Source of the DNA: Sipunculus nudus
Lineage: Eukaryota; Annelida; Sipuncula; Golfingiida; Sipunculidae
Direction: 5' to 3'
Assembly: GCA_026874595.1 (NCBI GenBank)
Contig: CM049309.1
Span: forward strand, 55,712,079 to 55,776,078
Length of the DNA stretch: 64,000 nt
How positions within the stretch are numbered: the stretch's first letter is position 1; the number at the start of each line of letters is the position of its first letter. Under the pieces are notes generated by a model that saw nothing but the letters and a program-made list of their open reading frames with translations, was not told the DNA's origin and searched no databases. Both the position numbers and the translations under genes were made by a program. Positions 24,352 to 64,000 of the stretch are shown here, piece after piece.

Positions 24352-24368
24352 ATGGTGAATCGGCCGAC
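24352..24368 (+). CDS. Gene 2 exon 1, start codon
   Basis: ATG in good context (A at -3, G at +4) and 17 coding bases before GTGAGT. Encodes M-V-N-R-P plus a split Thr. Confidence 0.
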
Positions 24369-25073
24369 GTGAGTTGCGATTTTACAATTAGCATCGCCCA
24401 TGCATTTAATTATTTTACTTTTCAGTCAAACTAAATACTATGTACAGTTTGGAAAGACGCTTTACGTCAAATTCTTTTATGGGAAACCAGAAAATTCCGT
24501 GTGCTTTGTTGCATATTGGAACTTATGAATTAAGTGCTTAAAATACTTTGACCGAAATGTCCATTTTCAGGATTAAAAATGAAAAAAATATAAAAGTGTG
24601 TTGGTCACATGTTGTGAAGATTACAGAATGATCAGTGGGGAACCCAATATAAGACAGACGTAGAGTGTGTATGCTTCCAATCGTACACAGCTACACGCGT
24701 GTGTATGTCCAAACGAACATCATGGACAATATAAAAACCGTTACCAGTGGTTAGTTCATATGACCAGGGCCAGTGTAAATTCAGATTCTGTATGCTTCAC
24801 CAACTTTTCTATTTCACTCTACAACAGGTTCGTCATAGATCAGCTCGCCGCAAGAAAATTGTTGTCGTATTTACAGTAGCCACATTAGCGGTGAGTTTTC
24901 AAACCTATAGAATGACAGTATGACAGATAAGCGGGGGTGACTTACTCAGTTGCACGTCTCATGTATGGATTTTGAATCTGACATGTTGCTTCTATTATTG
25001 CGAATTTGTCGGCCAACTAAAGGGGCTGAAATTTTTATTAAATGATGATGATGATGATAACAATAATAATAAT

Positions 25074-25151
<78 letters not shown>

Positions 25152-25610
25152 TTAATATTCTTTTGGTGAAACTGCCAGTTTCCTAGGTTCCATCAAGGGT
25201 GTATGCTTATATTGGGAGGGAAATTATCAGTCGTGGACGGGACAGGGTGTGCAGGTGGACTACTTGGTATACAAACTATAATTGTATGTTCAGGTAATAG
25301 CCCGGATGTTAGCAAACATTATAAATAACATCGTCTTCTATTTAAAAAATATAACCTGCAGATATTGTGCGTGGCACTTATCGTCGGACTCGCTCTGTGC
25401 TTTGGTTCATCACCTGTTGATGGTGCAGATTTTGCTGCGGCCAGTGCTAAAACAACAGCTCCGAAAAATACCAGATGTCGTACCAAGCAGGAACTACAGC
25501 CGGGCAATATGACGTCACCACGGAAGCGATGGATGGACACTGATTGTAAAAAACCAAGCGTCTGTCCTGAAGGGTCTGTTCCATTTAAATAAACTGCTTT
25601 CTTGTATATA

Positions 25611-28600: not shown

Positions 28601-31600
28601 AACAGAAGGCAGGTGCCGCTACCGCTCTGATCTGTGCGTCACCCTTCCGCCAGATGTCGTTTCGTCTCAAGACGAACCTCTACTGTTTGGGCACTGTGGG
28701 ACGGCAGGGACTACTTGTCTCAACTGTCAAACTTCAAAATCATTTTTTTTACATTTCAAGGAAACACTTTCTGTTCAAATTTCACATGCACATGCTTACA
28801 AAAAATACTTATTCCTTAAAGTTCTTATCACAAAAACACCCAATGTTCATGTAATTTGTTCCAACATACTTGAAAAGAACTACATCGTTCTCTTCACCAC
28901 TTTTATACCTACGCCGCTGATGTATTAAGAAGCCCCGGTGCAATATGGGTGTCAGATTTTTTCTCCAACAGTCACTAAACAGCAGAGTCGTACTCTAATG
29001 ATTCCGAGTCTGCGCAGTGTGAGCTGTGCGTATGCGCACCATTTTTGAACAATGAAACCAGAAAAACGGATGTCTCGTTTTGCTTGTCCAAAGAATCCCT
29101 TCACGCGAGGTCAAACTCTCCAACAGACGCTAGGTGTCGCTACCGTAAACCAATAGACAGTTATTTCCTGCCAGGTATCCAACCCCTCTCCAATTTAGCA
29201 GTTATTCTTCCTGTGTGTGTTTATAACTTGCTTCCACAAAAGGCAGAATTTGATGTTGTTAAATATATATACATTTAAGCATTAGAACCCTACGAACAAT
29301 GTATGGTTATTTACTGACCGAGCTGAGTCATTTGAGGGCTTCCCCGGTCTTGACCAATATTGAAAATCATTCTGAATTCAGCCTGTTGGAGAGGGCAACG
29401 ACATCTGAACCGTCACAAAGTGTATATATCGTAGACCTACATTTATTTACAGATTCAGCCACAGTTTTCTCCTATTCATTTCTCTAGAGTGGTTTCCTAA
29501 CATAAATCATGTTAAGTAATTACTGACTTTCTTTACGATTCAGTTCTCCTCCTCTCCTGCTGATCTCCCTGGATGGTTTCAGAGCAGATTACTTGTTGAG
29601 GAACTTCACGCCAACCATTAAGAGACTGAGCGAGTGTGGTGTCCATGCCAAGCACATGAGGTCTATTTTCCCCAGCAATACTTTCCCCAACCACTATTCG
29701 ATAGTTACGGTAAGAATGTAAACATGTATATATAAAACAAATTCTTAAACTATTTGTAACAGTGGGCTATGTACATTCTAGGACACAAGTGAAAACATCT
29801 CAATGTTGCCAATGAACTATATACTTGTACAAAGCAAGATTCTTGCTTATCAATCATGTTTATCAAAATATATAGAATACATTTAAAAATACAATAATCT
29901 CTGAACGTCACTTGTAAGTAACCAAATGAAAAACACCAATATTTCATCAACACTGAACGCCACCAGTATAAAATACGTCAACATCTCTGTAATCCATGTA
30001 CCTTGAACTTCACCGGCATGTATCAACATAAAAAACGCCAACATGTAATCACCAGTAAGTATAGAAACTTACAAATGTCCAGTATGGAGCCTAGACAGCT
30101 ATGGACGTCAATTTTTTTTCTGTTTGTTCAGTATTTGAAAATAATGGTTATGAAGAACACTTCAGTTATAGTCGCATGGGATCACACTCAAACCATTTAT
30201 ATTAAGACCAACCAAAAGCAATGCGTTAACGTTATAAAAACTTTCAGAACTTATATGTCGATAATTAATAATTAATTAATGTTTCTAATATCAATAATTT
30301 CATATACCATTATATCATGCCTCGTTTTTGTTCTAGGTGTATGCCATTTGCTTTCAATTTACAGGGTTTGTATGCAGAATCTCACGGCGTCATTGACAAC
30401 AGAATGTACGACAGAGAGAGGAAAGAATACTTCAGCCTCGCCAGTAAAACTAAATTTGACAGTCACTGGTATGGTGGGGAGCCGGTGAGTTAATTAAACA
30501 TGGCATATAAGCATACTTTACGGGAGCAACATCTGATTTACGATGTAACCTTGCGCGCAAGCATGTACTTTGATAAATGTGGTATTACCCATGTAAGAAC
30601 TATTTACGTTTGTAACGCCTCAACGTCAGTTTCGATTCCCGCGTGACCTCAGCTGATGCAGTAAAACCATATCGCACATACAGAAATCAATCTTGAGCCG
30701 GATTTTTTCCGACCTATTTATTGTAAGCGACCGGACAATCTAAAAGTCTCGCCGGCCATCGAGTTCTCGCGCACCTACCGATTTTCCATGCGGATCACTA
30801 TATTTTCCCGATCATTTTGGGCACTTTTGATTTCGTCATCAGGATTGTTATTGGCGTCAGGAATCATGAAAAGAAGGAAAAGCAGGTAGTAAATCAGCCT
30901 ATTTTTGGGGTTCCGTCATTACATCTTCCAAATTCACCGTCCGGATAATAATCGGCCGAAAAACCCTTGACATTGTCAAGGATATTTGCAGCCGATTTTG
31001 CCAGGTTAGGTGAATAAAATAAATGACCGAGAGCACCCTCTCATCTACCGGCTGGAAAAAATCGGTAGAATTTAGGCCGGCTTTCGTCGGACATCCTGCT
31101 CGGGCGACATTTGTCCTGTTCCATGACAGAGTCGGGAAACGTTTCAGTTATGCACCCTTTATACGGAAAATCATTTGCAGCACGACACTTAATAAGGTCG
31201 CAGTTAATGAAGGAAAAATTTTAAAAATTTTAACCGTTCAGGCCGAATAACTTCCTGTGATGGAAATTCCAATTATTAGACGATACCGTAAAAATACGAT
31301 AAAAAACAGTTTTATAAAAAAAGGTGTCAGAGCATTAAAAAAAACTATGATCTTACTGTCCAGTTAAGGTAATTTACCTGGAAATACCCGGCTCAACTGG
31401 AAAGAATTCTTCAACCATTCTGTACAGACCACTTACAGCAACTTCTTGGTGGTCATATTTGCAAACGTAAGTGTACATCTTTATCTTGTATATATGATTT
31501 TCTGTTTTGTAATTTAACTTACAATTTAACTGCTTCTTTGTATGCCTATGGGCCTGAATATAAATAGGCGTAAGGCTGTACGTGTTACTGTTAGGATGTT

Positions 31601-31693
31601 TCTATGAATTCATTTTAGCACATTATGCGGAGATCCGTGCATTGTTCAAATTATTAAAATTATGAAACTAATCATCATGGTATGAATAATGCG

Positions 31694-31740
<47 letters not shown>

Positions 31741-32156
31741 GTTAAGGGGCAGCATGCGTGTATCTGTGACAGCAACACCATAGCAGCAGAAATGTAAGAA
31801 ATGTGTCACTGCCAGGCCAGTGCCCTAAATTAAGTCAACACTTATCAGTACGGTAGGGTATATACCCCACTACACATTTTTCCATGTGCCATAAGGTTAT
31901 TTAGCATTGACAGACATAGTAGTCACGATTATATTTGATGTCGAGAGCGAAAGTTGTAAGCTGAAAACTTTCCTTGTTTTGATATGAATAATATATCAAA
32001 GAGAGGCCTTATATAACAGGCATGTTAATGGAACAATCATTTACGTTGTATGAGATAGAATTAACAGATATCCAGTATGCAGAGCAAGATACAATATATG
32101 AGCTATTTACACATATCAGGCAAGCCTGTGTGGCTGTATGAGTAGGCTTTACTGAT

Positions 32157-32208
<52 letters not shown>

Positions 32209-35200
32209 AGTAAGATTTTGAGTTAGACACAAATCACATGATTTCAGATATTTTTATTATCAGTTAATTAATTAGCATGGTTACTTAAAACTAGGTACAG
32301 CAATTCATTTCTCTCTCGGTTTCTTTATTTTCAGGCACAGCCCACTATGATACAGACATGCAGATGCATGTGATGGTAGATATCCACGCAGTTTGAAAGG
32401 TATATTCACATTGCAGTTATACTCGTGTTCATTGTCTCACTTCTTACTGCGTGTCTGACACTTGTGTTGGAATATATATATATATAAATTTCTAATCTTA
32501 ATAAATCCATAAAATATAAGGTTAACGTTAACTGTTTTAGCGCTTTTCATAATTAAATCCATTAAACGTTTGCATTTTATTTCCTGAGTATATGTATTAT
32601 TTTCAGGTGATACATGGATACAACCCCAGACGGGGACCGAAAATGACCAGAACGAATAAAATACAGATAAGAAAAGCCGAAATCTGTCAAGAAATCTGTC
32701 AGAGCTTGCTTAGATAGAATAGATGCATTGCATAAAAGTCGCCGTGCACCTTGAATAATTCTGGATATGATACAAACTGCTGTTAGAAAGACTTGTACTC
32801 CGACATGAGAATCCGGGCCAGGAAAAAAGGATATTCACAGAACAATGAAATTTATGCATATGTAGATGCATAATGTGTGGCAAGGATATATTTTCTTTTT
32901 TCGAAATTCATTTTTTTTTTATGAAAAATGCACTTAGACCGAAAAATTGTATTCCTTACAAAGATGCTCCTGTATATATGTGAGCGTTGCTCTTACTAGA
33001 AACAACAAAAATATAAATTGTATTCTGACTTACTACCTTACCAAGGCTTTAACATCAATACATGTATTTAAAACTGTTATCATGTTTCATATAACAAAAT
33101 CTATGAGATCTGTGTTGATTATTATATATATGTGTGTGTGTTGTGTGTGTGTACGAGTAAACGAGTGAATAACAGAATATGTTGTATTTGTAAGAGCATT
33201 CCTCTTTTATTCAACCCAATATTCACTTTAAGTAATACACTGCCCCTGTAATTTAAATAAACTGTGACGTCTAAATTGCATTTGGAATGTACGACATAAC
33301 CGCATAAATTACGGTAAATAATCAGTGGAAAAATTTACGGTATATTACCGTTATTTTTACGGTCAATGTTATTCACATTTACGGTCATCGTTAAATTTAC
33401 GGTATTTCTTTGGCAGCCATAATTGACGGTATTTTACGGTAAATTTTAAGGTCTGTGTCTGAGAGTGATATATGAGAGTATGGATGTTAAGTAATATCTT
33501 CATATGACGCAGTATGTATATATGTTTTTCGGGTGCAATTACAGACATGTCAAGCGTATTATCTTATCACTTCACGCTGAGATGACATCTTATCCCCCCA
33601 ACCGGGAAAAGTAGACACTGCCAAGATAAGATAAGATTTCCCTTGTTATGGAGTGCTTTTATCTTTTTAGCAAAATATTTCTGTTAATATCATTCTTTTC
33701 CCTGATCATATGAAATTTTTATCGAAACATACAAAAAGGTAAAAAAAAAATCGCCCGCCCGCACCGATTTCTGAAAAAAAGTGCCTGACAACCATACCTT
33801 TTTTTGGCCTTAGAGTTATTACAGGTCATGATATCGATTTTTGTGCATTGACTTGTTTATTATTCCTCTGCTTTAGATATGGCTGACGGCAATGAAACAA
33901 GGGAAGAGAGCAGCTACGTTTTTCTGGCCCGGAAGTGACGTGCCCATTAAAGGTCAGCAGGAAAATTATAATTTAATATTAAGTACACGCCACGTGTAAA
34001 ATGTGACATCATTTGAAGAGGTATTATAGACATGCAAGGAGTAGGTCAAATACGGCATAAATGTATCTAGTTATATCACGGTATAATGCCTAAAGATCAT
34101 AGTCAGCTTTTCCCTAAAACTGTGATTTTGTATACTATTCACACACGAAAAGCATTTCGTTTCTTATTTTATATAGCTATTCAACTCTCTAATTTTCTAC
34201 TAGATAATTTTAACCAAGCTCTTGATCATGTGAAATATTAAGTAAATAAACAATATTGACGAATTGCAAAGAAAATATAAATAAATGCATTTTGAATTTT
34301 ACAAGGTTGAATATTTCTTGCAGGAGAATACCCGGATATATGTTATACATATGACAGGTAAGTGGTTAATGATCTTTATAAATAGTTAAGCAAAAACATA
34401 TTGACGCCTATAAGTTTTCCATCGAAACGGCGATAGTCAGCTGATTAAAAATTAAGTTTTGACTTCAACACCTCTGTCTGCAGTGCATGCTGTAGTGTAA
34501 ATATATATAAAATATCCCCGATGATAGTATCAGGCGCTCAGCAATGATATCAGATTAGGCAAAAAAAAAAAGGTTTGATTCTCAGGCACTTTTTTCAGGC
34601 ATCAGTGCGCGAGGGCGATATTTTTACCTTTTTTTGTATGTTTCGATAAAAATGTCGCATGATAAGGGAAAAGCATGAAAATATAAAAGAATTATTTTGC
34701 TTAACAGGTAAATGCACTGCATTACAAAGGGAATCTTATTAAAATTGGATTATATTATGGCTTTGAAAGAATAATCCGAGCGGCTGGAGCTCAAAATTGT
34801 ATCAAGTTTCTATTGAAAATCAAAACCTTACCTGAGAACCTTACCTAAATTTTATGGCCTTACCTGGTTCTTTTTTTTTGTAGGAGTATTTCATTCAGGG
34901 ATCGTGTTTCTCAGGTCCTGGGCTGGTTGGATTTACCGAAAGACGAGCGCCCCGATATTATGACTCTGTACTTTAATGAACCAGACAAAACGGGACACAA
35001 TTACGGTCCGTATGGTGATAAGGTAGGTGTAGACATACATACGTGCATACATACATACATACATTACATACACATAAAATAAAAATAATAAAAATAATAA
35101 TATCATAATATTATGATATTATTATTTTTATCATTATTATGCCCCCCCCCCCCCCCGGGGAAAATTTGTTGATTTAGGTGCCATCGTCTGTCGTCAGTCG

Positions 35201-36334
35201 TCGTCTTTAGGATATCTTGCGAACGCGATTACTATGAAGGGCTGAATATTTTTCTTCAACATTTTTAACACTCATTGTTTCAACCGAAATCTTGGACGAG
35301 TTTGAATTCCGGTGACCTTTACTTTCATCTTCAAGGTTAAATCTGCCGAAATGTAAAATTCTTTTGAGCCCCATAACTTTTGAAGCGCTTCACATTTTCC
35401 CTCAGATTTGTACACAAATTTTTCCTACCAAGTTCTTCGCCGAGTTTGAAAACCGGTTACCTTGACCATGATCATCAAGGTCAAATCAGCTGAATTATAG
35501 TTATTCCTTTGTGAACGTGAGAAGTTTTGAAGAGCTGTATATTTTCCTCCAAAATTTAAAAAACTGGTGATCATGGCCTTCATCTTTAAAGTCAAATCTG
35601 CCGAAATGTAAAATTTTTGGTAACCCCATATATTTTGAAACGCTTCACATTTCTCACCATGTCTTTATTGGTACAACCTATATGCAATGGGGGAGATATA
35701 TGTTTTTGCAAGTGCGAAAACAAGCCATTCTAATTTTTATTTGACGACTGAATGATTATTGTTAAAACCCAGCACATTTATTGTTGCCATGGATACAGAG
35801 ATATTTATGTCACACACCTGTCATTGCTTCCATGCAGGAGCTTAATTTTCTTGGTAAACTTGTAAACATACCATACATGGAAGATTATAAAAGGCTTACG
35901 CATTACATTAATATATTTAGACTGCTTTGACACACATATACATACATGTACATTCCACAAAGAGTTATACAAATATGGAACTGGCAGTTGTACTCTGTCT
36001 AATTGCAGTTACAGCAGAAGCTTGTGGAAGTTGACGGAATGCTGGAGTTATTACTGGATGGACTTGTCAGGCGGAATCTGGATAAATGTGTCAACATCAT
36101 CATTGTGGCTGATCATGGTAATGTAGCATCCAGTCGCTCTCTATTATAATCGTTTATTAAGAGTTTCTCTCATATATCACTTGTGGTATTGCTCCTTCAC
36201 CAAGGAATAAATCTGATATTTTCATTTTATAATTCATTGAAGTTATCTGTTATAAAAATATCCAAATTCCTTTTATATGATAGTATGATATTAATGAAAT
36301 AAAATCGTTTATGAGAGGGAGGTCAAAACTGAAA

Positions 36335-36397
<63 letters not shown>

Positions 36398-40489: not shown

Positions 40490-40526
<37 letters not shown>

Positions 40527-52500: not shown

Positions 52501-55500
52501 CTCAACAGAGCACTGGGATTTCCAAAACCTTACATAAATAGTCAGCTAGGAACATATTGATTCAATATCAATCCTGTAACGGGTTCCAAAAATTATTTGA
52601 CATATTTATACAAACGCGTTAACAATGAGTCCTTACAACAACAACAACACGCATTAACAGTATACTTAGAGGACAATGCAGCTGCATTCTTAGTCGGCGA
52701 CACTAAAAAATGCTGTTATGGATATATCTGGATTTTTTGGGGATATCTTTGCGATTATACGTGTATGAATAACATTGTGATATAACTGGCTAAGTGAAAA
52801 TATGCAGAGATTTAGAAGACAGTTGTTTGAACTAAGTCCTTATGGTTTTGTAATAGGTCGATGACGCCCTGACTGAGATAGACAGTAGTATTAAGAGACT
52901 GATGGACGGCTTGTACCGACGGGGGACACATAACTGTGTCAACATCATCCTCGTCTCCGATCACGGTGAGTTCGCTTCAGCAATCAGTGGCTCGGTAAGT
53001 ATTTGCTGGTACGTAGAGATATAATCCAGATAGTAGCTCATATATAAAATTAAAGATTCATTACTTGTGAATATATTGGTAATTACTGACATCTCGTTTG
53101 TCATAACTTTTACGCGTTTTCATTTTCCATTTGAAGAATTTCAAATTTGTATTTAAAAAATTTTGAGACATACTGATGCACTACTGCCCTCGGTAAAATG
53201 TGTGCAACCTTACAGGAATGAATGACATCAACTGCAAGGAGAGACAATCCGGGGTCCGAGAGTACATTAACGAGAAAAACATGCATGTATGGACAGAGTC
53301 AGCGGGTAGAATCTCGAACAAGTACCGCAGTGACAGGTACAATGGACCCTTCTACCCAGTCGACCGGGAGGACCAAGGTATATAGTTACTTATAGTTAAG
53401 ACGAACTTCGGTAAAAGGGACCCCATTGAAACCCAAACCACAATTAAACAATTGAAGGTTTCCTGAATTACATCTGGTTGTTAGCGAACCTGTGAGCTTA
53501 TGCGATGGCGCAGGGTCGTCCATCCACCAATGTCCGTACGTTAACCCATGCTATCTCAAAAATCGTTGGAACTACCATCACCAAATTTTATGAAAAAAAA
53601 AATCAGTCATCTTAAAAACTATATGGGATTTTGCTTATTTTTTCTGTCTCCATTTACTTAGATTTTATAAGGTAAAAGTAAAAAAAAAAATCTTCTTCTC
53701 CGAAAATGTCCAACCGAATTGTTCAATATTTCACAGAAATAATCTCTGAAATCATCTCTTTCAAATTTGTTCGAATGGTTCCAGTTCGTTGAATAGATTG
53801 GTTTCATTGATTTTTGGTAGAGTATAGTTAGGTGGAGTTGGTCTTATGGCTAATAGTAAGCCTATTTCAAACTGAGGGCTGCAATAGTCTTCTTCTGATA
53901 AAACTGTTGTTTCAACATTGCACAAAAATGATTCTTAGGAGGCCTTTGTTCAAGTTTACTGAAATAATTTTTTTGCAAAATTACTAGACCTTTAACAATG
54001 AAAGGACATTATCTTTTATTATTCTAAACTTTTGGTAAAAAAATCTTGTGAATTTGTCAGCTTGAAAAAAAAGTATTGTAGCCAAAGTCTTTCAGTATGT
54101 TGAAACAGATTTACCAGCAGGGCAAGATTGTGTCTGTATCAGTAAATAGCATGGCACACTGCCAACTATTTCAGAATTGGCAAAAGGCCAAAGGTCAGTC
54201 TAGATCTATTTATAGCTTTGGTAGACTGTCATCTGTATCGAAATATGCAACAAGTCAAGAGTTTACACAGTGCAGCCAGGTACAGGTCAAAAGTTCACTC
54301 AGTGCAGCCAAGTGAAGGTCAAGAGTTTGCTCAGTGCAATAGCTATAGCTAGCAATTTGATCCGGTCAACTCGGGGAACTGCCTTTCTCACCTAAGCCTG
54401 GTCAGCCCAATGCACCTAACACAACAGAAGGTTGATGTATTGGCCTGATATTTTGACCTGACTGCATCTTTAATGGCTTTCTCGTACACAAGAATGGTGT
54501 CGCCACCTACAATGACCCTTTGCACAGTGTACCTGCTTATTTCTCAGAAGGGATTTGATTTATCAGCCTGAAATTGTGAATATTTATACATATCGGATAG
54601 CTTCGTCGTATACAAGACTGGTGGCGCAACCTACAATAATTGTAGCAAAGTGTATGTCTCTGCTTTTTTTAGGATGAATTTGATATATCAGCCTGAAATT
54701 GATAGCTTTGTCAAATGCAAGACACGTGGCGCCACTTACAATATTTTTGCAGTGTATGCTCCTGCTTATTCCTCAGAAGTGATTTGACATAAAAAAAACC
54801 TGAAATTATACAAGTCTATACATCTCTAACAGTTTTGTTGTATACAAGACTTGTGGCGCCACCTACAATTGTGTCATACAGCTGAGCACATAGCCGAAGA
54901 GTGGTTTGAAGTATCTGAAATGTTGCATGGCCGTACATCTTTGATGGCTTCCTCCTACACTAGACTTGTGGTGCCTTGTGTGCACCAGTACCAGTATTTC
55001 TGCAGTGACGTTTATGTAATTGGTGCATGTACTCGGGTTCAAATGTCTAGTGCTTGCATTATACCTATACATATCACATTTGTACGTGAAAAATTACGGT
55101 CCAGCATGGAAGCATTATACCCGATGTATTTCCCATTGCACAGGTTCGCATTAGGCCTGTAGGCCTTGTTTAAATCATGCTTTCGTAAGCGTGAATACTG
55201 GCATTAGTACTTAATGGATTTTAGGAACAGTCTATGCATGACAACTATAGTGAGGCTTAATATATTTTAATTTTCTTAGAGCTATCATGGTGGTTAGGTG
55301 TAGTCCTGCATTTGAGCATCTTCAGCTCCTAAATTAATTATAAAACAAAGTATCCAGAACGCCAATATTTTTTAAACGCCGTCTTTATATTATTGGATAT
55401 AAAATTATGTACTTTAATGTTTTGTTGTGTTATGTTATTGTTGTTCCGCAGTGCCTATTGAAAAGTTTATTGAGAAGCTTGAATGTAAAATTGAGGCTGT

Positions 55501-58500
55501 GAAAGTGTTCGAGAAATCGATGTTCCCAAAGAGACACCACTACGCCAACAGCCACCGAATTGATGACGTCATTCTTGACGTGGACGACCGATGGTTGGTC
55601 ACAGAGTGAGTCATGTGGTTTATGATATACATACATATCATGCCTATCTTGAAATACATGTACGAATAAAGAATAACGCATAAAAGAAGAAAATAAGGAG
55701 TGTTTTTATGACTGAAACACAGATGTTTCTTTTACTGAATTTAATACAGATTAGGCACGTTTACGTATAGAAACGTATAACCTATAATCCTACAGTAACT
55801 GTTGAGAATTTCAACAGAAGTATGATTTGATTACACATATTACAAACCAGATAACGAACATTCGTCAGAGACCAGTTATCACTAGACTCGGTAACCGCAT
55901 CTGAGTTAATTATTTTTAAAACATTTGCACTTTAATGTACTTCTTTACATTGGAGCCTATCTCCTTTTGGATGGGTTTGTAAAATGATATATACATGTGT
56001 TTCAATGAAAGACGCAAGAAGGACCGGTATTTGTGTGGATTGAAAGGTATGCATGGCAACGACGAAACACTTCATACAATGAAGGTAAATATTGATCACT
56101 ATATAAACATTTATCATTAAAAGTGATACACAGATACACGTACACGACATACTTATGTGCATATACACGCATACACAAACATTCACTTGTGATTATACAA
56201 TAAAATGGTCTTTATATATAATTGACCTATCCACCACAGCCCATATGCTCCGCCCTTTTAACCTAATTATTATAATGAACCCCCAAAATAATCCCACACA
56301 GATGGTCTTCCGTGCCCATTGTTACGAGAGCTGTTTACAAGACAATTATGACGATGACGTTTGACGTCGCTTTGACTGATGTCATCAACCAGAATCACTG
56401 TTCTACATTGTCGAATATATCGCAGTCATTGTGAAATGAGTTGCAATATTTTGGATTATTTGTCTCATACGAATTACGTGCCAGGTAAAACATTATTATT
56501 CACTTGGTAGTCGGAGGAATCGCTCCTGCAACCTTTGGCATAGAACTTTTTATACTGTCTCTTTTTTGTATAAAAAAATTTCCCGGATAACATTCCGACA
56601 CTGGTACTGGTACAGACTACATGTGTTCTGTTTGGCAGAGCTCTGCCAAATTTTGCAAATGTTGTGCTTGTCAGATGATTTGCGGTTTACCAGGCCACGG
56701 TCATCTGATTGGTTGGACGTAAGTCCAATGCTTATGATTATTCATTGAATGAATATGCGATTAAGGTCACATAGGTTTTCAAACAGAAACGCTCATGTAG
56801 TTCTCATGGTATTTTCCTTTATTTGACCGATGAAATATAGGAATATCATAAGTACTGGAGTCTTGATATATCACTTATCTTGCTGTAATGGTGTTAGTCC
56901 TGTATGCATAATTGGAATATATCAAGTTTTTGTAATAAAATGAATATAGAATTGAATTATGTTACAATGTGTTTCGTTGGAAATGGCATTACGGTATTAC
57001 ACAGCTATTCAGTTTGCTCTCCTTGTGTAGTGCAACGTGCTTATAACATGAGTTTCAGACTTCTTTCAGTTCAAAGTTTTTATTTCTCCTTTACAGGCAA
57101 TTTTCATGGCACACGGTCCAGATTTTGCCAAAGAAAAAGGAATTGAGGAATTCGAAAACATCGAACTTTACAACATAATGGCCCGTGAGTGAACTATAAC
57201 CCATTAGAGAATGATATAGTGAGCTTAATATCCAAATCGGAATGACGGCTGAAGATAATTGTCGCCACATGACTGGGTAAAATTAGACCATGCCTATTCT
57301 GTATCTTTTATGCATATTGGTATATAAGTCTGGCTCATTTCTCGTCTTACGAGATCACGTGAGAGAGCGCCAGTCCACAGTTCCCATCAGGCATGCGCTT
57401 CCGGTTCCCATAAGAGCATACCAAATGTTCGTGCCACTGATTCTGAAAACACTGCCGCATCAAACAACGTGGGCAATAATGCAAAATACCAAGGCCTGGC
57501 CAGCAGTACTACTCCAAGTAATGGTGAAGTGTCCACTTCAGCCAACCCTGCCATGCTGGATTCACAGATTCACAGCATACAAGGCCTCATACTTTCTCTG
57601 ATGAGAAAGAAGAAACAGAAGCATTTGATCAGGATGCAGAACCGGATCAGCTTCTGGATCCAGGTACTCAAGACTGAAGTCATTTATGATTTCTCTAATC
57701 AAGCAGGAACAGCTTGGCACGGAAGTCACGCCTAAGCTTGCTGACTTGATTAACAATTAGCTGGCATCTGGATCCTCAGATCAAGTGAAGGAAATGCAAA
57801 ATTCCATCCTAACCTCTGCTTACCGTACGGGCTTAACTACTACTTAGGTGTACAAAGAAATGTGGACTAGACAAAGAAATTATACAAAACTGAGTGATGG
57901 CAAAATGAAAAAAAGTGCAGTAAAGAATCGTAAAAGGGATGTAGCCTCTGATCACTGTTGCTGACTCCCTCCTTATTGTGAAGCAAGGTAAGCTACCTAT
58001 CAATGACTTAGACCTGGGATCCCTAGTTGAAACCTAACGGACAGTCTGGCTATATTTGGTCATCAAAGCATAAGCTTAACCTACGAAAAGGAGAGCTCCT
58101 TCGTGGAAACCTGCATGGAAAATATAAAGTAAAATGTGTTAGGCAGACGTGCCCATTACTGACATGTTATTCGGGGACAACCTTTTACAGTCCATCCAGA
58201 AAATTCAGGACTCCAACAATGTTGGAAGACGGCTAGTAGGACCGACCGCTGAGTGAACAACCAAATTTCATGAAAAAGGTTCAGCAAACCTCAGTCGTTA
58301 AGGCAAAACACCTACTAGCAAGAATTTTAAGATCAGACGGCCAGGTTAGTCTTTAAGCTGAACAAGTCGGGCCACAATAGACTATACAGCAAGTAAAAGA
58401 CGACACTCAAGTAACTTCACAGGCAAGTAGGATTTCAAACACTTAACTCACTAATAAACGATACAGACTCTTCAAAATTGGCGGAAGACAAAGGCATTTC

Positions 58501-61500: not shown

Positions 61501-64000
61501 ATTTGATAAAAATTTAAATACAGTCATGATGCATGAGTTTAGGTTGCTCTATAAAACTTAAACCGACTTATGATTTCCATGCATATACCTAATCGTGTGT
61601 ATAACAAATTGATCTTGTTATTACTGATTTCTGAAGATGTTTTGGGTGTCCCGCCGGCGCCCAACAACGGAACAGAGGGAGCTCTGTACTCCATTCTGAG
61701 AAACCCTCCGTCACTTCCGGTTATAGACACTACAGGCAGGTACAGCATCTGTAGCTACAGAGGGCCGACTGCGCATGACAACATCTGTCCGTGCAATCTG
61801 GTAAGTTTACCTGTTTCTTCTGTGTAATTTTCATTCGTTTGTTCACCAGTTCAGAGATTTACATAAGAACCATATGTTTCTACAATACGCTTTAAAAACA
61901 CTTTCAATATATTGCATGCAGAAAACAATAGCAGCTCTGAATGAGAGACTGAACAGAACAGAGATCCAGAACAGTCAAAGTTTATCTGACCATTTGCCTC
62001 ACGGGATGCCCGTCCTGAACAACAACGACACGGTCTGTATCCTGTACCATGACGACTACGTCTCAGCCTACAGCCATCAACGCAAGATGGCGCTCTGGTC
62101 AGCCTTCACCATCGATAGAAATCGGGTGAGAATTTCTTCGTTTGCCAGTCATGTTATTTATGGTTATCTTCTAATACACGTCACGATGTTTGTTGTCAAT
62201 AACTCGACAACACAGGAATAAATCTTTTTATTTTAATAGCTGAAATGAGATGTATGACAAATGTTTTGTTTACTAATATGTTTCAACTTCCATTTCCCTT
62301 GATAAACATTAATGTAGTCTGAGGTATATATTTAACAAGATTATACGTTTGATCTTGGGCCTGGTGCCTCCATAGATTTCCGCCATAGATATATTATGCC
62401 GTCAGTTAGATCCGACCCTTGCGCCACTGCGGCCCAATGTTTTACAAAGTCTAGAAGCCTTGTGTTTATTAATTATACTACCGGTATGTTTATGTTTTAA
62501 TACTTTTACAGTTCTCCGACATTGAGATTCCAAACTGCGTTAGAATTGACCCCCGGGTGGACCAGGTTGACCAGACGACCTGCGATAATTACACGTCCAT
62601 GGAAGATCAGATGATCGCCAGAGTCAACCTGTTCCCGCCAAAATTCAGCTCCTCAAACAAGACGGTACACGACGCCATGATCCTCACCAACAGCGTCCCC
62701 ATGTACAACGGAACAGGTCGGAGACAAATAAAATATATTTAAAGGTGCCACATCACCTACCTTTTGAAAAATAATTATGTGATATCTGGCTTCCTCTGTG
62801 TATATATTAATGATCTTAGGGTTTTTTTTTTTGTGAAAAAAATCTTATTCGGCCTTCGTGAAGGATGTGTGAACTTGTTTACCATAAACATGTTTGTTAA
62901 CACAGTAATGTTGACAAATGGGAAATATATGTTACCTAAGGTGGTAGGCCGCATATATGCGGAGGTAGAAAGGTCATTCGCAATTTGCAAAGCTCTGGCT
63001 TATCTGACTTGCTGCCAGATGTCCTTGTTGTATTTGTTTTGATTATTTGAGCGGGCCCCACATAAACATGGTGATAAAAACAAAACAAGCAGCCTGTGTG
63101 CGATGATATCCACGTTTCATTGCCTATTTTTAAGAAAGCTCCAAGGGATTGACTTTAATTTATAAAGTCAGATAGGTGATTGGGCCCCGGAAAACAATTG
63201 TTATAATATCGTTAATTGCCAGATTATTTCACTATGTTTATTTACGTATAACCTCGAGATGATTTTTTATTGTAGGTCAGACCTGGAGACATCAGTCCCT
63301 TGTCATAACGTCATGTGTATATGTATTCATTTAAATCACTGTAATTAGGAATTTTACCTCTAAATGATAAAGATTAACTCTAACTGAATCTCTTCATTTG
63401 CAATAATAAAAAGGGTTCATTGTTTCATTGACTGTTGTTATCATCTGTAAATTCCAATTTCCAGTGATTTGGGATCACGTGATTACAACTGTGACCGAAT
63501 GGGCACGTGCCTACGAACGGCTTCACGTGATAATGGGGCCGGCGTTTGATTCCGACTTTGATGGGCACTGGGACCCAGTCAGTTTATTACAGAGGTATGA
63601 CAAGTGATCATAGACTTAACTATAATAAACGAAACGTGTAGAAACGTGTGATCAGCAGATGACTGATGTGTTTAGGCTTAGTACAGAGACCAAGCTTAAT
63701 GTCTTTAAGGATATAAATCGTCATTGATGGTATTTTTATGCTAACTGCTCAACAGAGATAACATAATGGTGCCTACCATCGGATTATGCACATTGATTTT
63801 CAAATACATGTTATCACAATGTGTTTAATTTTGCTATATACATTGTAAATATAAATATTTCAACGCCCTTTTTTTTGCTTTATCCCCGTCCACGTGTTTC
63901 TCTTCCATTTGTGTTGTGACGTCACTTGTATTTGCTTTATTGGTGTTTTTACAGAGAACATATAAACAACACGGTGAACATCCCCTCCCACTACTACCTT
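24352..64000 (+). CDS. ENPP: ENPP gene 2: membrane-anchored bimodular phosphodiesterase, 3' end outside window
   Basis: Thirty-five exons in one frame (1,458 codons visible). N-terminus: M-V-N-R-P, an R-R-K-K stop and a ~26-residue hydrophobic helix, giving a type II anchor as in ENPP1 and ENPP3, but with no cysteine-rich somatomedin-B domains. Module A (about residues 94-834): D104, T140, D260, H264, D307, H308 and H422 match the zinc ligands and nucleophile of human ENPP1 (D218, T256, D376, H380, D423, H424, H535) with nearly constant offset. Module B (from 835): D845, T881, D1001, H1005, D1048, H1049, H1169. Each module has its own nuclease-like domain; B is cut at the window edge. The modules are joined by a C-P-A-G linker spliced in the same phase as C-P-E-G before module A. 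Expected role: ecto-hydrolysis of nucleotide pyrophosphates or phosphodiesters; substrate unknown. Alternative: two genes, with A ending at TGA 46,206. Confidence 0.
24839..24890 (+). CDS. Gene 2 exon 2: basic stop and first half of membrane helix
   Basis: Encodes [17 protein letters not shown]. The acceptor used must be the TAG at 24,838; the CAG at 24,827 would shift the frame into a stop. Donor gtgagt. Confidence 0.
25042..25152. repeat. (GAT)n/(AAT)n trinucleotide repeat
   Basis: GATGATGATGAT grades into about 30 AAT units. Confidence 0.
25362..25573 (+). CDS. Gene 2 exon 3: rest of membrane helix and linker
   Basis: Continues [15 protein letters not shown], then a Thr/Ala/Lys linker and a [13 protein letters not shown] end, equivalent to the short Cys segment that precedes the catalytic domain in ENPP1. 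Ends before GTCTGT; reading through would hit TAA at 25,590. Confidence 0.
25604..25656. repeat. (TA)n microsatellite
   Basis: TA repeat with one TG interruption. Confidence 0.
27097..27114. repeat. Poly-C tract
   Basis: Eighteen C followed by GCCC; possible i-motif/G-quadruplex-forming run. Confidence 0.
29544..29709 (+). CDS. Gene 2 exon 4 (module A start): Asp and Thr active-site exon
   Basis: Encodes [17 protein letters not shown] (metal Asp104) and [13 protein letters not shown] (nucleophile Thr140). Same size (166) and phase as gene 1 exon 1 and module B exon 1. Confidence 0.
29710..30364 (+). other. Gene 2 intron 4
   Basis: AT-rich, no exon or repeat recognised. Confidence 0.
30365..30484 (+). 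CDS. Gene 2 exon 5 (module A)
   Basis: Encodes [16 protein letters not shown] and HWYGGEP; 120 bases, phase 0, like the corresponding exons in the other two modules. Confidence 0.
31700..31736. repeat. (GT)n microsatellite
   Basis: About 18 TG repeats followed by CGCG. Confidence 0.
32157..32206. repeat. (TA)n microsatellite
   Basis: Uninterrupted TA repeat of about 48 bases. Confidence 0.
33297..33455. repeat. TTTACGGTA motif cluster
   Basis: At least eight forward or inverted copies of T-T-A-C-G-G-T within about 150 bases, several paired as TTACGGTATATTACCGTTAT-type hairpins. Likely a small palindromic element. Confidence 0.
33626..33800 (+). repeat. Left arm of inverted repeat around exons 6 and 7
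   Basis: About 170 bases whose reverse complement is found at 34,571-34,741, e.g. TTTTTATCGAAACATACAAA here and its complement near 34,640. Ends 76 bases before exon 6. Confidence 0.
33877..33952 (+). CDS. Gene 2 exon 6 (module A)
   Basis: Encodes [20 protein letters not shown], close to the ENPP1/3 W-x-T-A-x-x-Q-G-x-x-x-x-x-x-F-W-P-G-S strand. Acceptor ctttag, donor gtcagc. Confidence 0.
34324..34357 (+). CDS. Gene 2 exon 7 (module A), 34-base microexon
   Basis: Encodes [10 protein letters not shown] with split codons on both sides; size conserved in all three modules. Confidence 0.
34571..34741 (-). repeat. Right arm of inverted repeat around exons 6 and 7
   Basis: Reverse-complement match to 33,626-33,800 with moderate divergence, including the A/T-flanked GAAAAGCATGAAAAT and AGTGCC blocks. 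Lies 214 bases after exon 7. Confidence 0.
34884..35022 (+). CDS. Gene 2 exon 8 (module A): second metal-site segment
   Basis: Encodes [20 protein letters not shown] and [12 protein letters not shown]; Asp260 and His264 bind zinc. Very close to vertebrate ENPP1/3 in this segment. Confidence 0.
35088..35131. repeat. Perfect 44-bp palindrome
   Basis: Twenty-two-base arms with no spacer, centred between 35,109 and 35,110 on ATCATAATATTATGAT; AT-rich and able to form a cruciform or hairpin. A C15 tract (35,142-35,156) follows. Confidence 0.
35160..35665. repeat. Interspersed repeat with internal direct copies
   Basis: AAATCTGCCGAAATGTAAAA..CCCCATA.C.TTTGAA.CGCTTCACATTT occurs at about 35,340 and 35,586, with related CAAGGTCAAATC segments between. 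Opens with GTCGTCAGTCGTCGTC. Resembles dispersed mollusc repeats; family unassigned. Confidence 0.
36009..36117 (+). CDS. Gene 2 exon 9 (module A): DHG motif
   Basis: Encodes [11 protein letters not shown]-like helix sequence and [11 protein letters not shown] with Asp307 and His308 as zinc ligands. Acceptor ttgcag, donor gtaatg. Confidence 0.
36338..36394. repeat. (TA)n microsatellite
   Basis: Uninterrupted TA repeat of about 56 bases, 85 bases before exon 10. Confidence 0.
36479..36625 (+). CDS. Gene 2 exon 10 (module A)
   Basis: Encodes [17 protein letters not shown] and [11 protein letters not shown]. Five codons shorter than the module B exon. Acceptor is the last of several TTGTAGGT-like motifs in a row. 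Confidence 0.
36626..37027 (+). other. Gene 2 intron 10
   Basis: AT-rich; nothing recognised. Confidence 0.
37028..37181 (+). CDS. Gene 2 exon 11 (module A)
   Basis: Encodes [38 protein letters not shown]; the L-P-[KR]-R-x-H-[FY] strand of the family. Length 154, as in the other modules. Confidence 0.
37182..40131 (+). other. Gene 2 intron 11 (3.0 kb)
   Basis: About 38,000-39,750 is pyrimidine-rich on the + strand. Read on the - strand near 39,220-39,260 it gives [16 protein letters not shown], the K-A-F-D block of a non-LTR retrotransposon RT; the rest is too decayed to align. No exon seen. Confidence 0.
38900..39330 (-). mobile_element. LINE reverse-transcriptase relic
   Basis: F-x-x-F-x-K-A-F-D on the - strand (AAGGCGTTTGAC at about 39,223-39,234), followed by further RT-like but frame-broken sequence. 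Borders not definable by eye. Confidence 0.
40132..40201 (+). CDS. Gene 2 exon 12 (module A): last zinc-ligand histidine
   Basis: Encodes [20 protein letters not shown]; His422 in G-H-G-Y-D is the final zinc ligand. Acceptor aacag, donor gtcggt. Confidence 0.
40499..40525. repeat. (GA)n microsatellite
   Basis: About 13 GA repeats inside intron 12. Confidence 0.
40719..40806 (+). CDS. Gene 2 exon 13 (module A): end of catalytic domain
   Basis: Encodes [15 protein letters not shown] and [11 protein letters not shown]. Two near-identical CTATTACAG acceptors sit 16 bases apart; the second keeps the frame. Confidence 0.
40807..41650 (+). repeat. Minisatellite built from the exon 13 donor edge
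   Basis: At least twelve diverged copies of a unit like TTATGGCTGGTAGGTATTGA followed by GACCTATAAC, matching the end of exon 13 (..ATTGAGATCTACAATTTTATGGCTG|GTACGTAATGAG). Most copies keep GGTA[AG]GT-like or GGTAT donors. Confidence 0.
41758..41948 (+). CDS. Gene 2 exon 14 (module A): linker to nuclease-like domain
   Basis: Encodes [20 protein letters not shown] and SCTCPTRQ, very like the ENPP1/3 linker. Acceptor tttaag, donor gtactt. Confidence 0.
42155..42370 (+). CDS. Gene 2 exon 15 (module A): nuclease-like domain
   Basis: Encodes [48 protein letters not shown], matching the ENPP N-L-T...L-P-x-G and S-G-[FY]-S strands. Start chosen at 42,155 because that acceptor alone keeps phase 0. 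Confidence 0.
42431..42730 (+). repeat. Three decayed echoes of the exon 15 3' edge
   Basis: Copies at about 42,431-42,527, 42,548-42,628 and 42,700-42,730 repeat the ATCAGCGGCTACAGCCACGA..ATGCCACTTTGGACAGCG..GACGGAGAGGTAAGA end of exon 15 and its following AGTGACGTCAC. The second copy still has GACGGAGAG|GTAAGA at 42,600. Confidence 0.
42923..43079 (+). CDS. Gene 2 exon 16 (module A)
   Basis: Encodes [44 protein letters not shown]; the D-C-x-x-x-D-x-R-[VL]-P block of the nuclease-like domain. Confidence 0.
43369..43449 (+). CDS. Gene 2 exon 17 (module A)
   Basis: Encodes [20 protein letters not shown]. Exons 16 and 17 together correspond to one exon in gene 1 and module B. Confidence 0.
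43553..43568. repeat. Poly-G tract
   Basis: Sixteen G in intron 17 following GGGATAGGGC; potential G-quadruplex. Confidence 0.
43858..43987 (+). CDS. Gene 2 exon 18 (module A): calcium-loop exon
   Basis: Encodes [20 protein letters not shown] and [19 protein letters not shown]; the D-x-D-x-D-G-x-x-D loop is intact. Confidence 0.
43992..44070 (+). repeat. Echo of gene 2 exon 18
   Basis: CAAGTGACCGCTGGTCCTCT followed by GGTTTGACGCTGA copies CACGTGACGGCCGGTCCTCT..GTTTGATCACGATGCTGA of exon 18, starting a few bases after its donor. Confidence 0.
44473..44611 (+). CDS. Gene 2 exon 19 (module A)
   Basis: Encodes [19 protein letters not shown] and [16 protein letters not shown], matching I-P-T-H-[FY]-[FV]-V-L-T-x-C and the I-[IL]-P-H-R strand. 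Confidence 0.
44727..44825 (+). repeat. tRNA-like SINE copy 1
   Basis: GTTCCTACTGGCC leader, TAGTGAAGCGGTATGAA (A-box-like) and GGTTCGAATCC (RNA polymerase III B-box consensus). Confidence 0.
45051..45132 (+). repeat. tRNA-like SINE copy 2
   Basis: TTAGTCTAGCAGGTAGAAC fits an A box and GGGTTCGATTTC a B box, separated by about 30 bases as in a tRNA. Confidence 0.
45288..45400 (+). repeat. tRNA-like SINE copy 3
   Basis: Same GTTCCTACTGGCC leader as copy 1, AAGTCAAGCGGTAGAAGG and GGGTTCGAATCAACATTCAG, the latter shared with copy 2. Confidence 0.
45401..45998 (+). other. Gene 2 intron 19, 3' part
   Basis: No exon or repeat recognised between the last SINE-like copy and exon 20. Confidence 0.
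45999..46204 (+). CDS. Gene 2 exon 20: end of module A and inter-module linker
   Basis: Encodes [16 protein letters not shown], a glutamine-rich helix, then [16 protein letters not shown]. The last two bases (GG) precede GTGAGT and pair with the A that opens 46,489. If the intron is retained the frame stops at TGA 46,206. Confidence 0.
46489..46654 (+). CDS. Gene 2 exon 21 (module B start): Asp and Thr active-site exon
   Basis: Encodes [17 protein letters not shown] (Asp845) and [14 protein letters not shown] (nucleophile Thr881). 166 bases, same phase as exon 4. No signal or anchor exon can fit in the 284-base gap upstream. Confidence 0.
46655..47489 (+). other. Gene 2 intron 21
   Basis: Its first bases resemble those after gene 1 exon 1, as expected of paralogues. 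No exon or element recognised. Confidence 0.
47490..47609 (+). CDS. Gene 2 exon 22 (module B)
   Basis: Encodes [16 protein letters not shown] and WWHGEP; 120 bases, close to gene 1 exon 2. Acceptor ggcag, donor gtgcgt. Confidence 0.
47906..47981 (+). CDS. Gene 2 exon 23 (module B)
   Basis: Encodes [13 protein letters not shown] and [10 protein letters not shown]; the W-P-G-S strand is intact, unlike gene 1 exon 3 (W-A-G-A). Confidence 0.
48265..48535 (+). repeat. ATTTTGTATTCC minisatellite, left block
   Basis: Tandem, diverged units of about 50 bases built on GACATTTTGTATTCCTCTTT and TTGTATTGCTC. The same unit resumes at 50,905. Confidence 0.
48540..50890 (+). mobile_element. Decayed LINE between two blocks of one minisatellite
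   Basis: + strand reads [18 protein letters not shown] near 48,730, QQGCSLSQ-like sequence near 48,870 and [13 protein letters not shown] near 49,000, the conserved RT blocks of a non-LTR retrotransposon (A-D-D is catalytic), followed by a [17 protein letters not shown]-type stretch. Frames are broken throughout. Probably inserted into, or captured with, the minisatellite. Confidence 0.
49021..49168 (+). repeat. ~75-bp tandem duplication inside the LINE relic
   Basis: CTGATTTGGTGTCGAAAACG to ..TCGGATCT repeats almost exactly as CTGATTTGGTGTCAGGAAAACGG.. to ..TCGGATCT at 49,098. Confidence 0.
50905..51230 (+). repeat. ATTTTGTATTCC minisatellite, right block
   Basis: Units like GACATTTTGTATTTCTCTTT..TTGTATTGCTCTA repeat about eight times; the last unit, ATTTTGTATTCCTCTAG, serves as the splice acceptor of exon 24. 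Confidence 0.
51231..51264 (+). CDS. Gene 2 exon 24 (module B), 34-base microexon
   Basis: Encodes [10 protein letters not shown] with split codons at both ends. Nearly the same as gene 1 exon 4. Donor gtatgt. Confidence 0.
51265..52101 (+). other. Gene 2 intron 24
   Basis: No exon or element recognised; a 109-codon frame on the - strand (51,469-51,798) has no known domain. Confidence 0.
52102..52240 (+). CDS. Gene 2 exon 25 (module B): second metal-site segment
   Basis: Encodes [16 protein letters not shown] and [15 protein letters not shown]; Asp1001 and His1005 are the zinc ligands. Normal GT donor, unlike gene 1. Confidence 0.
52241..52856 (+). other. Gene 2 intron 25
   Basis: Nothing recognised. 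Confidence 0.
52857..52965 (+). CDS. Gene 2 exon 26 (module B): DHG motif
   Basis: Encodes [16 protein letters not shown] and [11 protein letters not shown] with Asp1048 and His1049. Acceptor aatag, donor gtgagt. Confidence 0.
53216..53377 (+). CDS. Gene 2 exon 27 (module B)
   Basis: Encodes [18 protein letters not shown] and [17 protein letters not shown]. 162 bases, as in gene 1. Confidence 0.
53378..54430 (+). other. Gene 2 intron 27, 5' part
   Basis: About 53,500-53,760 contains CCATCCACCAATGTCCGTAC and a GGTTCCAGTTC-like dispersed sequence; not assigned. 54,240-54,330 has short AGTTTACACAGTGCAGCCAG / AGTTCACTCAGTGCAGCCAA direct repeats. Confidence 0.
54440..55010. repeat. ~125-bp tandem repeat, about five copies
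   Basis: Each unit carries TACACAAGACTTGTGGCGCC-like sequence, ACCTACAAT, GCAGTGTATG..CCTGCTTATT and GATTTGA(T)..TATCAGCCTGAAATT. Divergence is substantial. Confidence 0.
55011..55451 (+). other. Gene 2 intron 27, 3' part
   Basis: Nothing recognised. Confidence 0.
55452..55605 (+). CDS. Gene 2 exon 28 (module B)
   Basis: Encodes [17 protein letters not shown] and [18 protein letters not shown], very close to gene 1 exon 8. Donor gtgagt. Confidence 0.
55606..56011 (+). other. Gene 2 intron 28
   Basis: Nothing recognised. Confidence 0.
56012..56084 (+). CDS. Gene 2 exon 29 (module B): last zinc-ligand histidine
   Basis: Encodes [19 protein letters not shown]; His1169. Asn replaces the usual Tyr in H-G-Y-D. 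Acceptor gaaag, donor gtaaat. Confidence 0.
56085..57096 (+). other. Gene 2 intron 29
   Basis: No exon or repeat family recognised. Confidence 0.
57097..57184 (+). CDS. Gene 2 exon 30 (module B): end of catalytic domain
   Basis: Encodes [15 protein letters not shown] and [11 protein letters not shown]; 88 bases as in both other modules. Confidence 0.
57331..57377 (+). repeat. DIRS left inverted terminal repeat
   Basis: Contains CTCGTCTTACGAGATCACGT then GAGAGAGCGCCAGTC. Its reverse complement recurs at 61,094-61,118 (25-base exact match) and, with a small change, at 61,251-61,287. Confidence 0.
57400..58600 (+). pseudogene. DIRS gag-like region
   Basis: Contains fragmentary open frames such as 57,469-57,735 with an [13 protein letters not shown] helix. 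Assigned by position only; no strong motif. Confidence 0.
58620..59270 (+). pseudogene. DIRS reverse transcriptase
   Basis: Frame at 58,807-59,178 reads [56 protein letters not shown], all standard DIRS RT blocks; continues as [15 protein letters not shown] and then a stop. Confidence 0.
59300..60020 (+). pseudogene. DIRS RNase H region
   Basis: Reads [23 protein letters not shown], then in broken frames [18 protein letters not shown] and [18 protein letters not shown], typical of the DIRS RNase H to methyltransferase-like junction. Confidence 0.
60270..61085 (+). pseudogene. DIRS tyrosine recombinase
   Basis: Begins [20 protein letters not shown] and ends [20 protein letters not shown] with the H-x-x-R box; the final tyrosine region is degraded (SHFSRLSYL). 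Several stops near 60,587-60,780. Confidence 0.
61094..61118 (-). repeat. DIRS internal complementary repeat
   Basis: CTCTCACGTGATCTCGTAAG then ACGAG, exact reverse complement of 57,341-57,365; positioned just inside the right terminal repeat as in DIRS1. Confidence 0.
61251..61287 (-). repeat. DIRS right inverted terminal repeat
   Basis: GACTGGCGCTCTCTCACGTG then ATCTCTAACGAGTCGAG, reverse complement of the left repeat with two short changes. Confidence 0.
61637..61800 (+). CDS. Gene 2 exon 31 (module B): linker to nuclease-like domain
   Basis: Encodes [20 protein letters not shown] and DNICPCNL; 164 bases as in gene 1. Acceptor tgaag, donor gtaagt. Confidence 0.
61922..62125 (+). CDS. Gene 2 exon 32 (module B): nuclease-like domain
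   Basis: Encodes [44 protein letters not shown]. Nearly identical to gene 1 exon 12 at DNA level, indicating recent paralogy. Confidence 0.
62371..62430 (+). repeat. Echo of exon 33 5' edge
   Basis: TTCCGCCATAGATATATTAT then GCCGTCAGTTAGATCCGACCC resembles the first 45 bases of exon 33. Gene 1 has echoes at the equivalent place. Confidence 0.
62512..62716 (+). CDS. Gene 2 exon 33 (module B)
   Basis: Encodes [20 protein letters not shown] and [12 protein letters not shown]; one 205-base exon where module A has two. Confidence 0.
62717..63464 (+). other. Gene 2 intron 33
   Basis: Contains a 92-codon chance frame (62,764-63,042); no domain or repeat recognised. Confidence 0.
63465..63594 (+). 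CDS. Gene 2 exon 34 (module B): calcium-loop exon
   Basis: Encodes [20 protein letters not shown] and [13 protein letters not shown]; intact D-x-D-x-D-G loop. Confidence 0.
63595..63954 (+). other. Gene 2 intron 34
   Basis: AT-rich; nothing recognised. Confidence 0.
63955..64000 (+). CDS. Gene 2 exon 35 (module B), cut by the window edge
   Basis: Encodes [15 protein letters not shown], equivalent to the start of gene 1 exon 15. One further exon (the L-L-T-G-L exon) is expected beyond the window. Confidence 0.

What the first reader, a model, noticed from the sequence alone, without database searches (positions are those of the whole stretch)
24352..64000. Single-chain ENPP with two complete catalytic modules
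Exons of two successive phosphodiesterase plus nuclease-like modules lie in one frame after a single promoter and membrane anchor. Both modules keep every zinc ligand and the nucleophile threonine (D104/T140/D260/H264/D307/H308/H422 and D845/T881/D1001/H1005/D1048/H1049/H1169). The ENPPs I know (vertebrate ENPP1-7) have one catalytic domain. A two-headed ecto-phosphodiesterase could process a substrate in two steps or act on two substrates.
Basis: partly seen in the sequence, partly recalled or inferred. Interest (0 to 1): 0.9.

Follow-up and report, generated by a model that had tools for sequence, protein, structure and literature searches.

The report
Two-headed ENPP ecto-phosphodiesterase gene
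An animal gene, possibly from a mollusc, appears to encode one membrane-anchored protein carrying two complete copies of a nucleotide-cutting enzyme that is normally single, made by the fusion of two neighbouring genes and kept in several copies.

Summary
The window gene has an open spliced frame with two full ENPP1-3-type modules (A, then B; each phosphodiesterase plus nuclease-like): 34 matched exons, no stop, Asp/His zinc ligands and nucleophile Thr intact in both. It runs 2.56 kb past the window (stop at 66,558-66,560). The decisive evidence is comparative. The genome holds six such A-B units (five in tandem, one 16.6 Mb away). In 6 of 6, A's last exon does not stop: it runs into a W-L-D..C..C-P-A linker, homologous to the segment before the PDE domain of ENPP3, then splices in phase 2 to B. 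A's own N-terminal exon uses the same phase at the same place. B ends with a stop at the homologous position. A and B form separate clades (100/100), so the fusion predates the copies. The junction exon is under purifying selection (dN/dS 0.15 at dS 1.36, U5-U6). No anchor exon was found before any B module. No ENPP1-3-type C-terminus was found outside these units; the other ENPP loci tested (4 of 6) are ENPP4-7-like. One unit looks degenerate. No RNA evidence was available. What the heads do is inference.

The parts
24828..24890 (+). exon 2 (probable): cytosolic RRKK and first half of the transmembrane segment, entry and donor phase 0; exon 1 not identified
   Evidence: counterparts upstream of A in U1 and U6; acceptor scores; not found by that motif search in U2, U3, U4
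25362..25573 (+). exon 3: second half of the membrane anchor and C..W-M-D-T-D-C..C-P-E-G pre-PDE segment, donor phase 2
   Evidence: homologues upstream of A in 6 of 6 units; boundaries
29544..29709 (+). A exon 1: Asp104 and nucleophile Thr140
30365..42370 (+). A exons 2-12 (30365-30484, 33877-33952, 34324-34357, 34884-35022, 36009-36117, 36479-36631, 37028-37181, 40132-40201, 40719-40806, 41758-41948, 42155-42370): rest of the PDE domain, zinc ligands, start of the nuclease-like domain
   Evidence: spliced alignment
42923..44611 (+). A exons 13-16 (42923-43079, 43369-43449, 43861-43987, 44473-44611): nuclease-like domain; the intron at 43080-43368 has no counterpart in B
45999..46204 (+). junction exon (206 bp): last exon of A's nuclease-like domain continuing without stop into the [20 protein letters not shown] linker; donor GGG|GTGAGT, phase 2
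   Evidence: 6 of 6 units open; linker aligns to the pre-PDE segment of ENPP3
46205..46488 (+). 284-bp junction intron; no AATAAA/ATTAAA, no in-frame Met before B exon 1
46489..46654 (+). B exon 1: first Asp ligand and nucleophile Thr of module B
47490..57184 (+). B exons 2-10 (47490-47609, 47906-47981, 51231-51264, 52102-52240, 52857-52965, 53216-53377, 55452-55605, 56012-56084, 57097-57184): PDE domain B
   Evidence: same phases as A
61637..64000 (+). B exons 11-15 (61637-61800, 61922-62125, 62512-62716, 63465-63594, 63955-64102, the last running past the window): end of PDE and nuclease-like domain B; final exon 66408-66557 plus stop lies in L029
497..13388 (+). B module of the upstream, separate unit U4 (its A module starts in L030, outside the window)

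Best explanation
It is a two-headed, membrane-anchored (probably type II) ecto-phosphodiesterase of the ENPP1-3 kind: anchor, PDE-A, nuclease-like A, short two-cysteine linker, PDE-B, nuclease-like B. Inferred origin: two tandem ENPP1-3-type genes fused when the stretch from the stop of the first to the anchor of the second was lost inside one exon, leaving the second copy's pre-PDE segment as the linker. The fused gene then multiplied to six. Shown by sequence: the architecture, the conserved junction, selection on both heads, and intact active-site residues. Inferred: that one mRNA and one protein carry both heads, and that both heads are active. A keeps more ENPP3-like sequence around the pocket (for example the WPGSDV loop and EPDxxGH) and is probably a nucleotide pyrophosphatase/phosphodiesterase releasing 5'-NMPs. 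B has diverged there (SVDx[11 protein letters not shown]), so it most likely has another substrate preference, working next to A on extracellular nucleotides or oligonucleotides.
For: Open frame through both modules in 6 of 6 units (U6 held only to the start of its B nuclease part, U3 with gaps). Junction exon without stop in 6 of 6, 70-100% identical, nowhere else in the genome. The B end exon, found 8 times, is followed at once by TAA in the five units read, and in all 8 the stretch homologous to the linker holds a TAA. Linker aligned by phmmer to the pre-PDE segment of ENPP3 and venom PDE. The phase-2 introns before PDE-A and PDE-B fall at the same position. No anchor exon in 6 of 6 junction introns; it lies before A in 6 of 6. 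Tree: A and B monophyletic, 100/100 each. dN/dS in pairs without U3 where dS was measurable: PDE-A 0.07-0.16, PDE-B 0.10-0.18, junction exon 0.03-0.17. All six Asp/His zinc ligands and the Thr nucleophile present in both heads of 5 of 6 units.
Against: No transcript or protein data. The first exon and promoter were not found. U3 looks decayed (A zinc His to Gln, B nucleophile Thr to Ser, A exon 7 and the B exon of the FPVIWDH stretch not recovered). The nuclease-like part of B is less constrained (dN/dS 0.23-0.49 without U3, 0.66-0.75 with U3). Junction introns of five units contain poly(A)-like hexamers (AT-rich DNA), so an A-only product by intronic polyadenylation is possible. The U6 junction intron is 4.6 kb with a weak acceptor score (-0.4). 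Three of six B first exons have a short in-frame stretch with a Met upstream. Substrates are not inferable from sequence alone.
Confidence: 0.85

Rival explanations
1. Two separate genes: A and B are transcribed independently and only look fused because they are adjacent.
For: Tandem duplication is plain here; three of the six B first exons have a short in-frame upstream stretch with a Met (U1, U3, U4).
Against: A has no stop codon in 6 of 6 units; the linker is conserved coding sequence ending in a donor; no anchor-exon homologue in 6 of 6 junction introns (best chance match E 0.039); in U5 the whole gap is 284 bp with no Met and no poly(A) hexamer.
Confidence: 0.05
2. One gene with two products: a full two-headed form and an A-only form made by polyadenylation in, or retention of, the junction intron.
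For: A stop follows at once after the junction donor in U5; poly(A)-like hexamers in 5 of 6 junction introns.
Against: None in U5's intron; hexamers are expected in AT-rich introns; a conserved alternative end was not sought.
Confidence: 0.1
3. B is catalytically dead and serves as a scaffold or regulatory copy.
For: B has a longer stem branch than A and changes beside the zinc site; in U3 its nucleophile is Ser.
Against: B keeps all six Asp/His ligands and Thr in 5 of 6 units, and PDE-B is under purifying selection (dN/dS 0.10-0.18 in measurable pairs without U3).
Confidence: 0.15
4. The array, and so the repeated support, is an assembly artefact.
For: In U3 the B exons from the DRVD exon to the end recur three times at 15.43-kb spacing, nearly identical.
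Against: The other units differ from each other (dS from about 0.15 to saturated, by region) and U6 lies 16.6 Mb away on the other strand with 63-70% identity.
Confidence: 0.03

Closest known systems
ENPP3 / ENPP1 / ENPP2 (autotaxin) and snake venom phosphodiesterase
   Same: PDE plus nuclease-like domain, six Asp/His zinc ligands and Thr nucleophile, WPGSDV loop (A), pre-PDE Cys segment; for A and B these are the best solved relatives
   Different: two catalytic modules in one chain; no somatomedin-B domain found
ENPP4-7
   Same: same PDE fold; separate loci on C6 and C12 of this genome match these or bacterial NPP best (4 of 6 loci tested, three of them by one exon)
   Different: no nuclease-like domain (recalled); score far lower against A and B (E 4e-39 to 5e-61, against 3e-106 to 6e-151 for ENPP1-3 and venom PDE)
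Somatic angiotensin-converting enzyme, sucrase-isomaltase (recalled, no call)
   Same: ectoenzymes that became two-headed by tandem duplication and fusion, with diverged specificities
   Different: unrelated folds and chemistry

Membership tests
ENPP1-3 subfamily | PF01663 phosphodiesterase domain | tested here: met
   two stretches, 633 bits in all
ENPP1-3 subfamily | Thr nucleophile and six Asp/His zinc ligands | tested here: met
   both modules of the window gene; both heads of 5 of 6 units
ENPP1-3 subfamily | C-terminal nuclease-like domain | tested here: met
   two stretches of PF01223; alignment of B to ENPP3 through both domains
ENPP1-3 subfamily | two N-terminal somatomedin-B domains (recalled as typical) | tested here: not met
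   none in the model; no PF01033 hit within the two clusters (where 150 of 441 candidates were scored); exon 1 unknown
ENPP1-3 subfamily | single N-terminal membrane anchor (type II in ENPP1 and 3, recalled) | tested here: inconclusive
   TM-like exon 3 before A in 6 of 6 units, exon 2 seen in 3; start codon and topology not shown
ENPP1-3 subfamily | one catalytic module per chain | tested here: not met
   two modules in one frame in 6 of 6 units
ENPP1-3 subfamily | hydrolysis of nucleotide phosphodiester/pyrophosphate bonds | not testable with these tools
   needs enzyme assay

The most novel reading that the evidence does not exclude
In this lineage the fused two-headed enzyme has replaced every single-headed ENPP1-3-type enzyme, and the two heads are specialised to cut one substrate in sequence (for example the two bonds of an extracellular cyclic dinucleotide, or pyrophosphate then phosphodiester), so that the intermediate is passed between heads on one anchored chain.
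Probability: 0.15. Interest if true: 0.85.

Novelty: new variant of a known kind. Interest (0 to 1): 0.66.

Why it matters
ENPPs control extracellular ATP, pyrophosphate, lysophosphatidate and 2'3'-cGAMP in vertebrates, all with one catalytic head (recalled). A conserved two-headed version is a natural experiment on how the specificity of ENPPs diverges when two heads are tethered, and the junction gives a readable record of how two tandem ectoenzyme genes fused. The genome also has STING-type exon hits at several places on C10 and C16, so degradation of cyclic dinucleotides is a testable role.

Tried and rejected
My searches for a conserved ATG exon were inconclusive. Separate genes: rejected, see rivals. 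Mollusc identity: the molluscan haemocyanin domain PF14830 was not found, in a search whose control rang nowhere and which the tool says shows no absence; one myosin exon matched PDB chains 3i5f, 2ec6, 2os8 and 1dfk (squid and scallop, recalled; 192-194 bits) about as well as vertebrate cardiac myosin (193 bits). So 'mollusc' is plausible, not shown. A third head was looked for: B ends in a stop; U3's extra B exons lack the first B exons in what was read (fetched only to 55,670,000) and are best read as a partial tandem duplication. Literature: nine answered searches, each listing at most 20 papers, showed no paper on an ENPP with two catalytic modules; I saw titles and starts of abstracts only, and of PMC4460706 the passages found by 'ENPP' and 'phosphodiesterase' (441-residue ENPP5-like snail proteins). 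Public eukaryote proteins and transcriptomes could not be searched, so predicted proteins of this architecture may well be deposited.

Full report
What was checked. The finding claims one gene with two ENPP modules. Open frames shared by the two halves showed exon-by-exon identity of about 39-62% (simple-repeat matches set aside). A spliced alignment written for this purpose, guided first by rat ENPP3 pieces and then by the window protein, gave module A (29,544-46,204) and module B (46,489-66,557), without stops. B's 16 exons enter in phases 2,0,0,1,2,0,1,1,2,0,1,0,0,1,2,0; A's 17 exons are the same with one extra phase-1 intron (43,080-43,368). Two micro-exons of 6 nt put in by the script (26,996 and 54,280) are treated as artefacts. 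Pfam finds two PF01663 and two PF01223 stretches and no somatomedin B.

D104, T140, D260, H264, D307/H308 are reproduced; the last His is at 424; B's are shifted by one to three. These differences come from small choices of splice site. Exon 2 was not seen in U2, U3 or U4 by that motif search. The initiator exon and the promoter remain unknown.

Six units. The whole genome (1.43 Gb) was scanned with PF01663: 12 first PDE exons lie in pairs on C4, five pairs at 55.48-55.78 Mb and one at 72.34-72.37 Mb on the minus strand. The same spliced alignment gives an A-B protein in each of six units: U1, U2, U4, U5 from the anchor exon to the end; U6 only as far as the DNA held (its B end exon is at C4:72,334,964); U3 with missing exons. 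The window holds U5 and, at 497-13,388, the B module of U4.

The junction. In 6 of 6 units the last exon of A goes on past the nuclease-like domain into NSWLD..C.....CPA and on to a donor in phase 2; B exon 1 is entered in phase 2 (for U3 the script first chose a donor 2 bp earlier, and at the phase-2 donor its last linker codon differs from the Gly of the others). The exon before PDE-A ends in the same way, W-[MI]-[DN]-T-D-C..C-P, then phase 2. A phmmer comparison of linker plus B aligns the linker with the residues just before the PDE domain of ENPP3 and venom PDE. So the junction exon is an in-frame joint of the terminal exon of one ENPP with the pre-PDE exon of the next; there is no intron at the joint. 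In B the same place holds TAA in the five units read. A genome-wide search finds six junction exons and eight B ends (two of them in U3's partial repeats) and one weak match elsewhere (E 0.27). The anchor exon is found before A in 6 of 6 units and in none of the six junction introns (best match there E 0.039, 13 residues on the wrong strand). In U5 the junction intron is 284 bp, without AATAAA/ATTAAA and without an in-frame Met before B exon 1. Against this: three other units have a short in-frame stretch with a Met before B exon 1, five have poly(A)-like hexamers in the junction intron, and U6's acceptor scores poorly (-0.4; median of 190 modelled introns 2.9).

Selection and age. A and B rows form two clades with support 100/100 each (13 rows). 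Of the order among units only A of U1-U4 together is well supported (97/99), and the outgroup is a long branch. The duplication into heads therefore predates the six units. For U5 against U6, synonymous change is saturated in PDE-A, NUC-A and PDE-B while amino-acid identity is 63-66%; the junction exon has dN/dS 0.15 (dS 1.36). Between U1 and U2, dN/dS is 0.15 for PDE-A and 0.13 for PDE-B. The nuclease-like part of B is looser (0.23-0.49 without U3; 0.66-0.75 with U3). The 18-codon linker alone is too short for a ratio; in pairs where it could be computed it ranges from 0 to 0.70.

Active sites. The six Asp/His ligands and the Thr are present in both heads of U1, U2, U4, U5 and U6. The column that labels 'oxyanion N' was set one residue too far; in the printed alignment the Asn of IIDN/IIAN is kept in all 12 modules but U3_B. 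U3 has A His to Gln, B Thr to Ser. B differs from A beside the zinc site (SVDxAGH for EPDxxGH in most units) and at IIANSMYD, which is why I infer another preference; this is not shown.

Is there a single-headed ENPP1-3 in this animal? The other PF01663 hits are on C6 (two loci; one tested, nearest ENPP5/ENPP4), C12 (four loci; one exon of each of three tested: nearest ENPP6 in two, bacterial NPP with ENPP6 close behind in one) and one weak hit on C8 (E 7e-4, not followed). No further ENPP1-3-type C-terminus was found. The tool scores only its best candidates, so this is a strong hint, not proof.

Most likely working. One membrane protein, probably type II, exposes two PDE heads. Each head uses Thr attack on a phosphodiester or pyrophosphate with two zinc ions (knowledge of ENPPs). 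A is probably a general nucleotide pyrophosphatase; B a diverged head with another preference. Sequential action on one substrate is possible and untested.

Novelty. By sequence this belongs with ENPP1-3 but breaks their one-head rule, and no SMB domain was found: a new variant of a known kind. Two-headed ectoenzymes by tandem duplication are known elsewhere (somatic ACE, sucrase-isomaltase; recalled). Nine answered paper searches listed none for ENPP; predicted proteins in databases could not be searched.

Noticed in passing
L031-L034 joined and reversed, 26686-28535 (C4:72,350,466-72,352,315): 25 head-to-tail matches at about 75-bp spacing that repeat the end of B exon 1 of U6, including the nucleophile motif [15 protein letters not shown]; apparently a minisatellite born from an active-site exon, lying just after that exon.
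   Followed up: no
C4:55,631,000-55,679,000 (L025-L028): In U3 the B exons from the DRVD exon to the end occur three times at 15.43-kb spacing and nearly identical: recent partial tandem duplication or assembly artefact.
   Followed up: partly
window 45999-46204 and 61922-66557 compared with U1, U2, U4: Synonymous distance falls from 2.0-2.5 in PDE-A and about 1 in PDE-B to about 0.2 in the junction exon and nuclease-like B, as if gene conversion had homogenised these parts.
   Followed up: partly
window 20404-21630, minus strand: 408-residue open frame that looks like part of a Gypsy-type retrotransposon polyprotein with reverse transcriptase (by eye, recalled; described only), between U4 and U5.
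   Followed up: no
G000:C2:44845229-44856291: Myosin heavy chain gene with several copies of the exon around positions 109-153 of the head, which suggests mutually exclusive exons.
   Followed up: no
G000:C17:20317000-20390000: A regular array of somatomedin-B matches at about 8.3-kb spacing on both strands.
   Followed up: no
window 29538-29544: U5's acceptor for A exon 1 has shifted by 6 bp compared with U1, U2 and U4 (the AG used there is changed and the next AG is used).
   Followed up: no
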